Below are positions 4,125 through 40,330 of a stretch of DNA of 56,878 nucleotides, piece after piece. The first letter of the stretch is position 1; every line of letters begins with the position of its first letter. The position numbers and the translations under genes were made by a program. Source of the DNA: a virus; the IMG/VR virus record IMGVR_UViG_3300029981_000015, positions 1-56,878 of that record. One strand, given 5' to 3'. The notes beneath the pieces were generated by a model. That model did not search any database. It was not told where the DNA came from and worked only from the letters and a program-made list of their open reading frames with translations.

Positions 4125-5102
4125 ATGTATAGTACAAATACTGTCCTAGATAGAGTCGCAAAACCAAAATTAACCATGGAAAGTATACTAGAAAAAGTAA
4201 CAGAATATGATATTTTTTCAAAATATATTGGTGATTTTAAAATAGGCTACATTTACAATAGTCCACTAAGAGAAGACAAGAATCCCTCATTTGGAGTTTT
4301 TGTGAGTAGAAAAACGGGAGATCTATTGTACAAAGACCTAGCAAGCGATGATTGTGGAAACGTATTTAAATTTGTTAAACAACTTAAAAAGCTGCAAACG
4401 TACGAAGAGACTTTGAAGACAATTTCAGATGACATGAATATAGGCAACTTAAAAGTAATGTTATCATCAGAAAACAAACGAAGATTAATTAAGGACACAA
4501 TTATAAACGTAGTCAGAAAGCCACTAAATCTTACTGACATTAAATTTTGGAATAGCTTTGGAATATCTAAAGAAACTCTTAGGATATACAAAGTTAGTGC
4601 AATTTCTAAGTTTGTGATAAATGGGATAGTAAAAGGAGTATACAAGACAGAAAGCCCTTTGTATTGTTACAAAGTGTTTAATAAATTTAAAATATATAAT
4701 CCTCTTGGGCCTAAAACGATTAAATGGAGAGGGAATTTAAACGCCCTGGACATACAGGGGTTTGAGCAGCTACCAGAAAATGGAGAATTGCTCATAATAA
4801 CTAAATCGTTAAAGGATGTTATGGTATTAAGTGAAATGGGATATGACGCAGTAGCTCCTTCGAGTGAGAGCATTACAATCCCAGAAATCGTAATGAATAA
4901 CCTAAAAAAGAGGTTCAAAAGAATACTTATTTTTTATGACAGAGACAAAGCCGGTGTGGAATATGCAAGGAAAATATCCAAAACATATAATATAAATGCA
5001 ATCTTTATAAACAAAAAATATAAAACAAAAGACGTTAGCGATTTAGTTAAAGGACTGGGATATGCAAAAGCATTACAGATCTTTGACTCAATGGTTAATT
5101 AA
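4125..5102 (+). CDS. DnaG-type DNA primase with degenerate zinc and Toprim sites
   Basis: This 325-residue primase should make RNA primers for the phage fork together with the upstream helicase. The N-terminus has the fold signature of a CHC2 zinc domain (PLREDKNPSFGVF, then a GNVFKFV stretch), but the cysteine/histidine ligands are replaced. The C-terminal Toprim domain has IITKSLKD at residues 224-231 and DRDKAG at 272-277. The first Toprim glutamate is a lysine (K227), while the DxD pair (D272, D274) is kept. From memory, Bacteroidota phage primases often show this TKSLKD form. A later ATG at 4176 is less likely, since the region between is conserved-looking. There is no helicase domain fused, unlike T7 gp4. 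Confidence 0.8.
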   Translation: MYSTNTVLDRVAKPKLTMESILEKVTEYDIFSKYIGDFKIGYIYNSPLREDKNPSFGVFVSRKTGDLLYKDLASDDCGNVFKFVKQLKKLQTYEETLKTISDDMNIGNLKVMLSSENKRRLIKDTIINVVRKPLNLTDIKFWNSFGISKETLRIYKVSAISKFVINGIVKGVYKTESPLYCYKVFNKFKIYNPLGPKTIKWRGNLNALDIQGFEQLPENGELLIITKSLKDVMVLSEMGYDAVAPSSESITIPEIVMNNLKKRFKRILIFYDRDKAGVEYARKISKTYNINAIFINKKYKTKDVSDLVKGLGYAKALQIFDSMVN

Positions 5103-5106
5103 AGGA

Positions 5107-5230
5107 TGCCTAGGAAGTTCAGCAGGCAGAACAAACTTAATAATAAGAGGGAAACATATTCTCACTACAGTGAAGTCAGTCAACGATTCATTATTAGGTT
5201 GTGACATGGGTTCGATTCCCACCTAGGCAA
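5107..5230 (+). tRNA. tRNA-like RNA with an oversized anticodon arm (or an intron)
   Basis: Acceptor strands at 5107-5114 and 5222-5229 pair over 8 bp, with A5230 as discriminator. The D arm is GTTC (5117-5120) and GAAC (5129-5132), and its loop keeps A14, GG18-19 and A21. The T arm is TGGG/CCCA (5207-5210, 5218-5221) around a canonical TTCGATT loop. The 8+4 split keeps the normal 12 bp stack. In place of a 17-base anticodon arm there is an 11 bp stem (5134-5144 with 5190-5200, one G-U) capped by 45 bases, which contain a TCAC-TACA-GTGA hairpin. One reading is a 48-base insertion in the anticodon loop (5147-5194) after an AAT anticodon; another is a true tRNA mimic. CCA is not encoded. Position 8 is A instead of the usual T. 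Confidence 0.55.
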
Positions 5231-5234
5231 CAAA

Positions 5235-5301
5235 TTGAACATAAGTTCAAATAGCTATCACTATTATTAACGTCATTAGCAGAAGGAGTTACCCTGTTAA
5301 T
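5235..5301 (+). promoter_or_regulatory. Structured leader between the tRNA-like RNA and the AAA+ gene
   Basis: Two inverted repeats lie in the 90 bases before the AAA+ gene. TTGAAC (5235-5240) pairs with GTTCAA (5245-5250) over an ATAA loop. ATTAAC (5266-5271) pairs with GTTAAT (5296-5301) and encloses an AAGGAG at 5283-5288. That AAGGAG is about 34 bases from the ATG at 5322, too far to serve as its ribosome site. The leader may help process the tRNA-like RNA or shield the mRNA 5' end. Confidence 0.35.
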
Positions 5302-5321: not shown

Positions 5322-6542
5322 ATGAATATAAAAACAAACAGTGAAAATTATCTGATTAGTCCAATGGAGACTGAAAAACATTTCGGAATCAAGACGAGTA
5401 AATTTATCGTAATCGATAAAGAAACATTTGATTTCGTTATTCAGAACGACAGCGCATATATATCAGAAGGAGCCTGGATTGACGAAGAAATTGACGGACG
5501 AAAATTCCGTAAAGTGAAGAAAAGCATAATTGCTGAGTTTGGAGATATTTTATTAGAGGAATATAAAAACTCTGATAAGATTTACGAAATTATCAGCAAG
5601 AAATTTATTAACATGTCAGGACCTTCTCAGGTTATCAAAAATGCATTGGCAAATAATATGAATCTCATATTATACGGTAAAGGCGGATTTGGTAAATCAG
5701 AAGTTTGTGACGAATTATTTTCTTGTGCAGAATTAAAAGATCGTGTATTTATTAAATCACTTTCAGAAGCTACAACAGTAGAAGATTTATTCGGTGGCAT
5801 AAATATTAAAAAGATGACCGATACCGGCTCAATCGAATACAATTGCGAAAATTCGTTCGCAAATAAAGAAATCGTGATCTTTGAAGAAATCTTTGATGCA
5901 AATCCGCAAGTGTTGGCCGCACTAAAGGATACTTTGACATCTAAAGAGATCAGAAATGGCAATCAGCGTTTCCCGATTAAGACAAAAATAATTATCGGAT
6001 TGACAAACAAGACGTATGAAGAAGTAATTGAAGATGACTCAACAGAGGCATTAACTCAAAGATTTGCAGTATCTTATCCATTCCAATACAAAATTGACAA
6101 ACTGAATTCAGCAAGTTTGATTTTGAATCGCTACCCGGACTTTGGAGAAGATAAATTAGCTGCAATGGTTGATACAATTGCAGAAATGAAAGATCTTTCA
6201 CCAAGAAAGATTCTTGAGATGTCAAAATACATCAAAAACCTGGAAGTAATCAAGACGAAGACTTATTCAGAAAAGATTACAAACAATTTGATGACTCCAG
6301 TTATCAATTACCTAAAAACAAAGACGGGAATAAATGTATACAGATCATTATTTAACGAAATCGTAGCTACGAAAAAGTCAATACGAGACGAACAAATTAA
6401 TGATTACGATTCATTTATTGACACTCAAAGAAATTTAGAGATTATCAAATTGGTAACATCTAAATCAAAAGATTCTTTCGCAAGCAATGCTTCAAAAGAA
6501 TCCGAGGAATTATTAATCATGCTAGAAAAGAAGTTGTCATGA
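5322..6542 (+). CDS. MoxR-type AAA+ ATPase
   Basis: This 406-residue AAA+ ATPase resembles the MoxR/RavA class, which remodel protein complexes together with VWA-domain partners. Walker A is GKGGFGKS at residues 119-126. Walker B reads IVIFEE at 184-189, with glutamate where the usual DE has aspartate. A sensor-1 region follows (KIIIGLTNKT, with the asparagine preserved) and then a likely arginine finger (TQRFAV). About 110 residues precede the ATPase core and are probably substrate or partner specific. The last four bases overlap the start of the VWA gene (ATGA), the tight coupling typical of MoxR-VWA pairs. The ATG has an A-rich leader and no Shine-Dalgarno site. Confidence 0.82.
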   Translation: MNIKTNSENYLISPMETEKHFGIKTSKFIVIDKETFDFVIQNDSAYISEGAWIDEEIDGRKFRKVKKSIIAEFGDILLEEYKNSDKIYEIISKKFINMSGPSQVIKNALANNMNLILYGKGGFGKSEVCDELFSCAELKDRVFIKSLSEATTVEDLFGGINIKKMTDTGSIEYNCENSFANKEIVIFEEIFDANPQVLAALKDTLTSKEIRNGNQRFPIKTKIIIGLTNKTYEEVIEDDSTEALTQRFAVSYPFQYKIDKLNSASLILNRYPDFGEDKLAAMVDTIAEMKDLSPRKILEMSKYIKNLEVIKTKTYSEKITNNLMTPVINYLKTKTGINVYRSLFNEIVATKKSIRDEQINDYDSFIDTQRNLEIIKLVTSKSKDSFASNASKESEELLIMLEKKLS

Positions 6543-37900: not shown

Positions 37901-40330
37901 TAATTTAGATATACTACGTTTTTTATCTCCTATCCTAGCAGTCCTTTGATCTATATACTTATCGCCATCAGAGGCCCAGGCACCATTAGTATTTTTTTTA
38001 TTATAATAATCTCCATAAGACTCTATAAAGTATGTATTAGCAAACTTATAATCTATATTTAACCCAGTTCCACCTAAATTACCATATCTATCATATATAT
38101 ATAGTAAATCAGAATATCTATCTTCACTATAAATTTCTTTATGTATACAATCATGTGTCTCTGGAACTAAATTTAAAGTATCAACAGATAATGACAATGT
38201 TCCTCCAGCCGAATCATATAATAAAGCGGTCTTACTAGAATTAAACTGATATGATCTAGTATCGTATTTAGATATTGGAATATCCCATGTATCTTCAGTT
38301 GTATTTGCAGCAAATAGTATGTTATCTTTACTTTCTATATATGTAGGCTTAAAAACATTTCCACCTATAAGATTAAACTCTGCTTGAGTTAACTCGCCAA
38401 GAGCACTAGTGCCACCATCTTCTACAAATACCTTATTGTTAAATACAGATGTAGTTATATCAGTTTCTTTTACTATAGTTATTGTCGGTACATCAGAATA
38501 ATTATAATAGTATAAAGATATTAATTTTAATTTTGTAAACTGGCTCCCTGTTGGTATGTCTATAGACACTTTAACAGATTTACCAGTTGGTTTTCCATAT
38601 ATCTCTCCTAATCCAGTACCAAGATAACTAATACTATAATCAGACTGTTCGCTCTCTGTCAAATGGACTACTGGACTAGATGGACTTAATTCAGTTTCTC
38701 CTCCAGATGGACTATATAGTTGATAGAAATATTGTATTAATCCAGCATTTAATCGTCCAGCCCCTATGGAAGTAATAGATGGCGCAGGAAGACTAGAAGA
38801 TGGAACTATATCAAACATAGTTTCATTTTCTATTAATGCATTTTTAGAGTCATTACTTTCTGCAATATTTATAACCCTAGTAAAATTAGACCCATCTGCC
38901 CAGTATACTTTAATATTATCAAAATCTTCATATCTACCAACTATACTTATTGGTGCGTCTTCTGGAATATCAAAGTCTACACCATTTGGGTTGACTACAT
39001 TTTTAAATATTGGTGTAGTATTATTAGTAAATGTGACTCTATATATTTTAAATGATTTTTCAATATTATCTGAGAATTCATAATATATATATAAATTATC
39101 AGCATCTACATATGATGCAGTAACAGTGGTGTCATATACTCCATTTGTGGACTGAATAAACACTTGTCTGTTTTGACCAGCAGGTATTAAATGAGATGGG
39201 GCATTTACATTTATCTTTCCATCTAGAGCCTTTGTAAAACTTAATATTTCAACCTCTCTGTTAAATATTATATCAGTATAATTACCATTAAAGTATAATG
39301 TAGTATTATTAACAAACGTCATAGATTTCACCCCATTATACTTTCCAGAAGTAGAGTTAAATATAACTCCAGTAACATTTCTAGTTGTGTTTAAAGGAGT
39401 TTCAAGAGTTATTTTTATTGTATTTGCAACAGAACCAGATGATATACTAAGTACATTCGAAGTGAACGCTAACTGTTCTGGGACTATGTCATAGTGCCAT
39501 GTAACTATGTCTGGCTCAGTAACTAGAGATGGACCTGAATCAAGTCCAGTTAACTCATATCTAAAATACTGAGTAGCTCCCTTATATCTTATAGTGAGAG
39601 GATCTGCATTTGGATCCCAATTTTCACCCCCATTTTCATCACATGGTATTCCATTGTTTTTAAATTCAAATGAAAGAACTTCAATACTAAGCACACTAAG
39701 CGTTGTATTGAACGTCTTAGTTAAATCTATTACTAATGTATCTAATGTGGCGTTAGTAGTATATGTAGGGGTATCTGGACCAATAATCGGGCTTAATTCA
39801 TCTGTCGTACTATCATTATAGGTAACTCGTATACTGATAGTCATATTCCTAGGAATAAGATCACTAAACCCACAAATAACTCTTTCTGGAGATTCGTTAT
39901 TTACATGAACCGTATCCACGTGAAAATAATTAGGAGTTAAATCTATAGGCGATGGAGTAACTCTAGAATCCTCTACATAAACTGATTGCTGTGGTATATG
40001 TGGTATAGATATAGTTGCTGGATCATTATCATCTATATACTGATACGACAAGGTACCCACTACGACTTTTGGAAATTTAGTAAATACAACGCCAATATCT
40101 CTAATTGTAGATGTTGCTATGATCTCTTCTCCAGCAGAAAATATACTCTGAGTGTTAAGTAACTCAGTAGAACCTTCTATGTTGGTTATAGAACCAGTAG
40201 TAGCATTGTTATTGGTTACCGTTCTGATATTCTCAGCATATCTATATTGAGTACTTTTTAATAGACTCTTATCGGTATCTAGGTTCATTCCAGCACCAAA
40301 TGTATTTATTTGAGATTTATTAGTACCCAT
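34997..40330 (-). CDS. Giant tail muzzle/nozzle protein, N-terminal part (about 1777 aa)
   Basis: This is a very large beta-rich protein. The ATG at 40330 (MGTNKSQINTFGAGMN) is preferred over an upstream in-frame start at 40360 inside the previous gene. The opening stretch, followed by YRYAENIRTVTNNN, resembles the start of crAss muzzle and T7-type nozzle proteins, which form the distal tube of short tails. The C-terminal 300 residues (RKFDNKLFFWQKNSFGVL and on to FDKKYNEMIITL) look like a beta-propeller region. The ORF ends in a stop shared with the start of the next ORF, which seems to carry the remaining domain. Regularly repeated hydrophobic/threonine strands fill the centre; no catalytic site is visible. 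Confidence 0.75.
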   Translation of the reverse strand: MGTNKSQINTFGAGMNLDTDKSLLKSTQYRYAENIRTVTNNNATTGSITNIEGSTELLNTQSIFSAGEEIIATSTIRDIGVVFTKFPKVVVGTLSYQYIDDNDPATISIPHIPQQSVYVEDSRVTPSPIDLTPNYFHVDTVHVNNESPERVICGFSDLIPRNMTISIRVTYNDSTTDELSPIIGPDTPTYTTNATLDTLVIDLTKTFNTTLSVLSIEVLSFEFKNNGIPCDENGGENWDPNADPLTIRYKGATQYFRYELTGLDSGPSLVTEPDIVTWHYDIVPEQLAFTSNVLSISSGSVANTIKITLETPLNTTRNVTGVIFNSTSGKYNGVKSMTFVNNTTLYFNGNYTDIIFNREVEILSFTKALDGKINVNAPSHLIPAGQNRQVFIQSTNGVYDTTVTASYVDADNLYIYYEFSDNIEKSFKIYRVTFTNNTTPIFKNVVNPNGVDFDIPEDAPISIVGRYEDFDNIKVYWADGSNFTRVINIAESNDSKNALIENETMFDIVPSSSLPAPSITSIGAGRLNAGLIQYFYQLYSPSGGETELSPSSPVVHLTESEQSDYSISYLGTGLGEIYGKPTGKSVKVSIDIPTGSQFTKLKLISLYYYNYSDVPTITIVKETDITTSVFNNKVFVEDGGTSALGELTQAEFNLIGGNVFKPTYIESKDNILFAANTTEDTWDIPISKYDTRSYQFNSSKTALLYDSAGGTLSLSVDTLNLVPETHDCIHKEIYSEDRYSDLLYIYDRYGNLGGTGLNIDYKFANTYFIESYGDYYNKKNTNGAWASDGDKYIDQRTARIGDKKRSISKLTTVDSSGVTTDINLTDLNIPIHNGFLNYSNPYLSNNLTSYQRDEIYRFACVFYDAKGRKSPAKWIADIRFPAGYIESSSWNSSIFETPAESNSTVYSNTFLNDQELLVKPLGVKFVLRNLPSDIKKVEIVRAKRDINNKTIYAQGAIQKTGTYRAEYQQDHDGNVANIIAGGLVNTLRPHPVLSMGYALSITGIGRSQKKLHTPSVSTNLPDAWIEDWHDFDDNRYYVNSDLGRILPNYTDHAISPYFYNKSDVLFINPETSYYGVDFTEQLRKVSGAIDADIVDIIYPVSTPPVVGMGINVTGSSYFGHPDHNRLQFYLVDDSSHKYYPSAMYFGADINKRLYTTGITINDHSVFMSMGLVGANYRLVSNSSSATQYLQNVDATRTDIKYPTIGYFNEPFKRAFLSIGGVLRYVSGSTYCFKNGFVYDITNTSHDKALITIDDANDAGVSGMTFKYFNRYSGTKLNTSDTISLVYQNSNSLLDYTAFTYSGLNINKSTASTLLTKKIKSFEYSGDIASGLPIEKISGAQYVSSGGSQYLNWAKPLTTGNEGEPSQNDTITGPSGMTKVGGPHGSAIILNLEVSEQFPTITDINQTRKKYTSGALYDGYKSLDRIGSSALSTFIVNLKVMNDYIYGGSSLVDRQFTEYISTGVSFDNTGASIEKLVFGGDTFIGLFDYTLVMATDPYCDSYGSDTKGRHPMIENQVKHIGALIPVESSINLHLVNSKSYIASDNNFAIQREPGVYSPGASQGSEWKITQQLPQYSYNSAYSADMTGIGFESKLLVTEDNKIFDCRVWYSGAKTNDEIYDSWSKFQVANYIDVDTQYGEITGIRKFDNKLFFWQKNSFGVLSVNERALIKDNNISTLTLGSGGVLSRFDYISTSNGMKKDMICGISDSESGLYWMDIERAEICIYGSSITPLSKAKGIQTVLNSNKSNISNKIPMIFDKKYNEMIITLNGLTGVDNIR

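What the first reader, a model, noticed from the sequence alone, without database searches (positions are those of the whole stretch)
5107..5230. tRNA-like RNA with an 8+4 acceptor/T stack and a giant anticodon arm
Seen: an 8 bp acceptor stem and a 4 bp T stem (normal total 12), a canonical D arm with A14, GG18-19 and A21, and a TTCGATT T loop. Where the anticodon arm should be there is an 11 bp helix with a 45-base cap that contains its own hairpin. Known: some bacterial allo-tRNAs use an 8/4 split, but with normal anticodon arms. Known tRNA group I introns are much larger than this insert. Inference: either a small insertion/intron in an anticodon loop, or a tRNA mimic that has lost decoding. 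A mimic could act as a processing signal between primase and AAA+ mRNAs, or as a decoy for tRNA-cutting host defences.
Basis: partly seen in the sequence, partly recalled or inferred. Interest (0 to 1): 0.8.

Follow-up and report, generated by a model that had tools for sequence, protein, structure and literature searches.

The report
Anticodon-less tRNA mimics between phage genes
Between two replication genes of this crAss-like phage lies an RNA that keeps the half of a tRNA that tRNA-cutting enzymes recognise but has lost the decoding part; relatives keep such elements at the same gene junctions, which suggests that the phage uses fake tRNAs as cut-here marks in its messages.

Summary
The element is real. 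5107-5230 has an 8-bp acceptor stem, a canonical D arm, a 4-bp T stem and a T loop, between a primase and an AAA+ gene. ARAGORN finds no tRNA; Rfam tRNA scores 27.5 bits, below its cut-off of 29. The giant 11-bp arm is possible but not favoured over other folds of the same stretch. Twelve distinct post-primase sequences from one environmental crAss-like clade all carry a tRNA-like element, none with a tRNA anticodon arm: the arm ends in a tetraloop or triloop, is missing, or is giant. Acceptor, D, T and hairpin stems covary strongly. Gut Suoliviridae have such elements just upstream of primase, DNA polymerase and sigma-factor genes; upstream of one DNA polymerase family, true tRNAs and mimics interchange at 20-27 nt from the start codon. 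The extreme form, in three phages, is a bare 12-bp acceptor/T helix with T loop. Most likely these are intercistronic processing signals for host RNase P, working like plant mitochondrial t-elements. Cleavage is inferred, not shown. The literature held here does not describe such a phage family.

The parts
4125..5102 (+). DNA primase gene (zinc ribbon + Toprim); its stop codon ends 4 nt before the tRNA-like element
   Evidence: PHROG 12622 DNA primase E 5.5e-45; Pfam Toprim
5107..5230 (+). tRNA-like element without a decoding loop
5107..5114 (+). acceptor stem, 5' strand TGCCTAGG
   Evidence: pairs with 5222-5229; pair probability 0.97; acceptor pairs covary in 12 relatives
5117..5132 (+). D arm GTTC-AGCAGGCA-GAAC with GG in the loop
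   Evidence: pair probability 0.98; D stem covaries
5134..5200 (+). stretch in place of the anticodon arm: possible 11-bp helix 5134-5144/5190-5200 with 45-base cap, or two shorter hairpins; no tRNA-like anticodon loop
   Evidence: equal energies, pair probability of the 11-bp helix 0.18
5207..5221 (+). T arm TGGG-TTCGATT-CCCA
   Evidence: sequence; T stem 10/10 paired with 4 of 5 pairs changed on both sides in relatives
5222..5229 (+). acceptor stem, 3' strand CCTAGGCA
5230..5231 (+). A73-C74, encoded in all twelve post-primase elements of the clade and in 35 of 40 canonical tRNA hits of 20 crAss-like genomes
5322..6542 (+). downstream gene: MoxR/AAA_5 ATPase, co-directional
   Evidence: Pfam AAA_5 E 2.6e-15, bpMoxR E 2.5e-16

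Best explanation
5107-5230 is an intercistronic tRNA-mimicking processing element. Transcribed as part of the primase-to-ATPase mRNA, it folds its acceptor and T stems into a 12-bp stack topped by a T loop (with D-loop contact), the module that bacterial RNase P measures. Host RNase P is expected to cut at about 5106/5107, just behind the primase stop codon, separating the primase message from the downstream message. The downstream RNA would then start with the tRNA-like fold, or be freed of it by a tRNA 3'-processing enzyme. The arm that would carry the anticodon is functionally free, which is why it varies from absent to giant among relatives. Shown: the structure of the core, its covariation, its lack of a decoding loop, its conserved gene-junction positions, and the exchange of mimics with true tRNAs at one such position. 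Inferred: co-transcription with both neighbours, cleavage by RNase P, 3' processing, and the benefit (separate mRNA stability and clean 5' leaders).
For: (1) Covariation in 12 post-primase elements: acceptor pairs 2-7 100% standard, 6/6 changed on both sides; T stem 100%, 4/5; D 97%; hairpin in place of the anticodon arm 100%, 4/4; 0 of 10000 shuffles each. (2) That arm ends in GAAA (five), GTAA, TAAA, UGU or UUG, is absent, or is giant; none is a 7-nt anticodon loop. (3) Acceptor + T = 12 positions in most members; the extreme form upstream of a sigma-factor gene is a bare 12-bp acceptor/T helix with T loop and trailing AC in cr10_1, cr50_1 and G018, exactly 12 bp in each, 8/12 pairs changed on both sides. 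[quoted passage not shown] (4) Placement: several start 4-12 nt after a stop codon and several end about 17-25 nt before the next start codon, which leaves little room for a promoter between; 33 of 35 ARAGORN-negative or odd hits in 20 genomes are co-directional with the next gene (shuffles 0.4 hits in all). (5) Interchange: one DNA polymerase family is preceded at 20-27 nt by tRNA-Val(CAC) in cr1_1, a tRNA with a TCT anticodon in cr115_1, elements without an anticodon arm in cr52_1 and cr60_1, and odd-loop elements in cr4_1 and cr130_1 (DNA polymerase annotation). (6) A73-C74 is kept in all twelve and in most true tRNAs of these phages.
Against: No RNA data: cleavage is not shown. The first acceptor pair is standard in only 4 of 12 and never G-C, unusual for a tRNA and possibly bad for exact cleavage. 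The window's T arm has pair probability 0.46 on energy alone. The leader behind the window's element is about 91 nt, so a promoter could lie there. Some elements follow a terminator-like hairpin directly (L070, L072, L079), which also fits a 5'-leader role without cleavage. phi14:2 has none of these elements by the census, and DAC17 and crAss001 have mostly true tRNAs.
Confidence: 0.62

Rival explanations
1. A cis-acting structured leader or trailer that is not cut: the tRNA-like fold protects mRNA ends, modulates translation of the next gene, or influences termination.
For: Elements sit close to the next start codon; some follow terminator-like hairpins (L070, L072, L079); more distant phages have a terminator-like hairpin alone at this place.
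Against: It does not explain why exactly the acceptor/T module, about 12 bp long, with T loop and A73-C74 is kept, nor why true tRNAs, which must be cut out to function, take the same place.
Confidence: 0.18
2. A free small RNA that acts in trans as a decoy or inhibitor of tRNA-binding factors (for instance EF-Tu, CCA enzyme, tmRNA/SmpB) or of a host defence.
For: A similar form of about 65 nt, a CDS-less tmRNA of mycobacteriophage DS6A, is reported to inhibit E. coli tmRNA (PMC11915505). The minimal elements resemble the tRNA-like domain of tmRNA.
Against: None of the 12 clade members has the G3.U70 pair that marks alanine acceptance (identity rule from general knowledge). Fixed placement a few nt behind a stop codon or about 20 nt before a start codon is not needed for a trans RNA. 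Anticodon nucleases would have no target.
Confidence: 0.12
3. A true tRNA gene interrupted by a small intron or insertion in its anticodon loop.
For: The D arm and T loop are canonical; elsewhere in crAss-like phages there are tRNA-like genes with enlarged anticodon loops (G015 39210-39307; crAss001 96205-96341 and 96455-96596).
Against: No relative at this site has a spliced-type 7-nt loop; they have tetraloops or no arm. Rfam finds no intron family in the region.
Confidence: 0.04
4. A decaying tRNA pseudogene kept by chance.
For: Below the Rfam tRNA cut-off; anticodon lost.
Against: Compensatory changes throughout the stems, tetraloop-capped arms that covary, and conserved position across primases down to about 54% identity.
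Confidence: 0.02

Closest known systems
Plant mitochondrial t-elements
   Same: tRNA-like sequences at the ends of mRNAs; [quoted passage not shown] CCA-tailed but not aminoacylated (PMC11658184)
   Different: Organellar, a handful per genome, described as homologous to tRNA genes; here phage-encoded, at conserved junctions of replication genes, with forms down to a bare minihelix
Mitochondrial tRNA punctuation
   Same: tRNAs between genes mark the cuts in long transcripts (general knowledge)
   Different: There true decoding tRNAs do it; here non-decoding mimics and true tRNAs share the place
mascRNA (MALAT1) and menRNA tRNA-like domains
   Same: tRNA mimics needed for precise RNase P processing of a long RNA (PMC11693755)
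   Different: Nuclear, eukaryotic lncRNAs
Other bacterial and phage RNase P substrates (P1/P7 C4 RNA, phage M3 RNA, T4 gene 32 mRNA, a polycistronic mRNA)
   Same: Phage RNAs and mRNAs cut by RNase P (PMC11143913)
   Different: Listed there as single cases; not a recurrent family with true acceptor, T loop and A73-C74 placed at gene junctions
Allo-tRNAs with 8/4 acceptor/T split
   Same: 8+4 geometry of the window element

Membership tests
tRNA (decoding) | Rfam RF00005 at or above gathering score, or an ARAGORN call | tested here: not met
   27.5 bits against 29; ARAGORN 0
tRNA (decoding) | 5-bp anticodon stem with 7-nt loop and U33 | tested here: not met
   Absent in the window and in the post-primase elements of its clade
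tRNA upper half (acceptor, D, T) | 12-bp acceptor/T stack, T loop with C56-R57-A58, GG in D loop | tested here: met
   Sequence and covariation; a few relatives have smaller D loops or a degenerate T loop (L049)
tmRNA | Tag reading frame; G3.U70 in the acceptor | tested here: not met
   124 nt without a tmRNA match; pair 3-70 is C-G, G-C or T-A in 12/12
Group I intron in a tRNA | Intron core between anticodon loop halves | tested here: not met
   No Rfam intron match at E up to 10; no orthologue with an uninterrupted loop at this site
Allo-tRNA (8/4) | 8/4 split with normal anticodon arm | tested here: not met
   8/4 split present, anticodon arm absent
t-element / tRNA-punctuation signal | tRNA-like element at mRNA junctions, co-directional with flanking genes | tested here: met
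t-element / tRNA-punctuation signal | Cleavage by RNase P and 3' processing, CCA addition | not testable with these tools
   needs RNA ends or biochemistry

The most novel reading that the evidence does not exclude
Crassvirales use tRNA-shaped punctuation for operons: a set of conserved gene junctions (around primase, before DNA polymerase, before a sigma factor) carries tRNA mimics worn down to what RNase P needs, in the extreme a bare 12-bp acceptor/T minihelix, and real tRNAs and mimics replace each other freely at such junctions.
Probability: 0.6. Interest if true: 0.85.

Novelty: new variant of a known kind. Interest (0 to 1): 0.77.

Why it matters
crAss-like phages are described as among the most abundant phages of the human gut, yet how their long transcripts are cut into messages is, as far as I know, not known. 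If these elements are cut by host RNase P, then (a) many phages of this order borrow an essential host ribozyme to process their mRNAs, (b) nature has run a deletion series showing which part of a tRNA RNase P needs, down to a free-standing minihelix, and (c) automated annotation misses many structured phage RNAs and may read some phage tRNAs as codon-supply genes when their role is punctuation. It also offers a testable reason why some phages place single tRNAs inside operons.

Tried and rejected
DNA search of named phages with the region: no match. Rfam at gathering scores: none. The TGCCTAGGAAGTTC pattern found only near-identical copies and one chance match. Intron reading rejected (no orthologue with a normal loop at this site). 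tmRNA reading rejected (no tag, no G3.U70). Stable free decoy not excluded but not favoured. A ribozyme upstream of some gut elements was considered; Rfam suggests it is the end of permuted tmRNAs (RF04321). Site-2 acceptor covariation is uninformative (GCTTT nearly invariant, 5657/10000 shuffles), though its arm covaries. L051 has no element recognisable by my descriptor; L060 has a plausible one that I did not count. My genome census misses 8/4 elements such as the window's and counts some tRNAs or tmRNA halves as odd, so its figures are approximate. My first hand segmentation of L009, L050 and L049 did not match the DNA exactly and was corrected. Literature searches found no description of such elements in phages; only open-licence papers are held.

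Full report
What is there. Window 5107-5230 lies 4 nt behind the stop codon of a primase (4125-5102) and 91 nt before a MoxR-type AAA+ gene (5322-6542), all on the + strand. It can be read as an 8-bp acceptor, AA, a 4-bp D arm with an 8-nt loop containing GG, a middle of 74 nt, and a 4-bp T stem with loop TTCGATT. ARAGORN does not call it; Rfam tRNA gives 27.5 bits, just below its cut-off. The fold is more stable than shuffled sequence (z -3.0). The acceptor and D stems are near certain in the ensemble (0.97, 0.98). The giant 11-bp arm is not (0.18): with the tRNA core enforced, it and a two-hairpin alternative tie at -31.6 kcal/mol.

Relatives at the same site. The primase leads to 16 loci at 54-100% identity and 62 with a profile. 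In the window's environmental clade the same spacer carries a tRNA-like element in twelve distinct sequences. The arm that should hold the anticodon ends in GAAA (L044, L048, L053, L057, L059), GTAA (L061), TAAA (L062), UGU (L050) or UUG (L049), is missing (L009), or is large (window, L052). I aligned them by structure by hand: acceptor pairs 2-7 are standard in 12/12 with all six pairs changed on both sides; T stem 10/10 with four of five; D stem 97%; hairpin in place of the anticodon arm 11/11 with four of four; none of 10000 shuffles reached these values. Two of the twelve (window, L049) were left out of the 5-bp T-stem count. Pair 1-72 is standard in only 4 of 12 and never G-C. A73-C74 follows in all twelve. 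The shuffles do not correct for relatedness, but many pairs carry three or more standard types.

A second site and other genomes. A second family lies a few genes upstream, just outside the window: it occurs in L018, a contig almost identical to the window, and in 15 contigs in all. Its arm covaries strongly with a 6-nt AGAATA-like loop (TGCACT/AGTGTA, TATACT/AGTATA, TGCGTT/AACGTA; 6/6 pairs changed on both sides, 0 of 10000 shuffles), while its acceptor is too conserved to test. In gut Suoliviridae (cr10_1, cr50_1, cr55_1, cr52_1, cr115_1, cr4_1) the gap before the primase is unannotated and holds such an element about 17-25 nt before the start codon. Across 94 primase flanks 19 have one (one of them, in L078, reads as a true tRNA), against 0.005 expected from shuffles and 1 in 505 control pieces.

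Census. In 20 crAss-like genomes or large fragments a generic descriptor finds 75 hits in non-coding DNA against 0.4 in shuffled spacers; ARAGORN gives 40 of them a three-letter anticodon, and 35 are odd or not called. 33 of those 35 are co-directional with the next gene. The smallest are bare minihelices before a sigma-factor gene (Pfam Sigma70): AAATGTTAGGGG-TTCGACT-CCCCTAACATTT in cr10_1, AAGTACTAGAGG-TTCGACT-CCTCTAGTACTT in cr50_1, ACATGGAGAGGG-TTCGACT-CCCTCTCTGTGT in G018, exactly 12 bp each, each followed by ACTA. One DNA polymerase family (annotated so in cr60_1) is preceded at 20-27 nt by a tRNA-Val(CAC) in cr1_1, a tRNA with a TCT anticodon in cr115_1, elements without an anticodon arm in cr52_1 and cr60_1, and odd-loop elements in cr4_1 and cr130_1. 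The position is kept while the anticodon is not.

How it most likely works. What is conserved is the acceptor/T stack of about 12 bp, the T loop, usually a D loop with GG, and an encoded A73-C74; what is free is the anticodon arm. [quoted passage not shown] Many elements sit a few nt behind a stop codon or about 20 nt before a start codon, so they are probably inside polycistronic transcripts. I therefore infer that host RNase P cuts at their 5' ends, giving separate messages; whether a 3' cut follows is open. Plant mitochondrial t-elements work this way (PMC11658184). None of this is shown by RNA data here.

Limits. Gene calls in the census are simple ORF calls (TAG read through where the standard code left more than a quarter non-coding), and ARAGORN decides what counts as canonical; the 35 include at least one tmRNA half. 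A73-C74 is seen in 20 of those 35. The window's own giant arm has no covariation evidence. Named genomes were chosen for availability, not at random.

Novelty. tRNA punctuation and t-elements are known; single phage RNAs cut by RNase P are known. A recurrent, position-conserved family of decoding-dead tRNA mimics in phage operons, interchangeable with true tRNAs and reduced to a bare minihelix in some, was not found in the papers held. I call it a new variant of a known kind.

Noticed in passing
L179, L183, L196 (cr10_1, cr50_1, G016); G009 about 73826-74143: These crAss-like phages carry permuted tmRNA genes (Rfam RF04321, 50-58 bits; ARAGORN tmRNA* in G009); in cr10_1 and G016 a tRNA-like element follows directly behind.
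   Followed up: partly
crAss001 (NC_049977) 96205-96341 and 96455-96596, - strand: Two tRNA-like genes of 137 and 142 nt in a cultured phage share the inner motif GAGTTACTTCAA; possibly intron-bearing tRNAs or giant mimics.
   Followed up: no
G015 39210-39307, - strand (L203): tRNA-like gene with canonical D arm and 5-bp anticodon stem but an anticodon loop of about 30 nt that contains a hairpin.
   Followed up: no
L044 3976-4168: About 190 nt of unexplained sequence between primase stop and tRNA-like element, with a GGG-ATGATAA-CCC hairpin whose like recurs in G011 near 80.4-80.9 kb; no Rfam match in L044 besides tRNA and a weak nuoG hit, a weak sub-threshold RAGATH-7 hit in G011.
   Followed up: partly
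window 5235-5250 and 5276-5300: Leader of the AAA+ gene has hairpins TTGAAC-ATAA-GTTCAA and TTAGCAG/CTGTTAA; the second varies in pairs in relatives (L009 TCGACAG/CTATCGA), and a TATTATTAAC-like motif lies between them.
   Followed up: no
G018 4169-4238, - strand: tRNA-like gene for which ARAGORN reads a 4-nt anticodon (TGTA), i.e. an 8-nt loop.
   Followed up: no
G011 80437-80636 and the 85 nt upstream of it, - strand: Non-coding stretch with at least two large tRNA-like elements in tandem, one of 200 nt with an inner GAACAG-ATGATAA-CTGTTC hairpin.
   Followed up: partly
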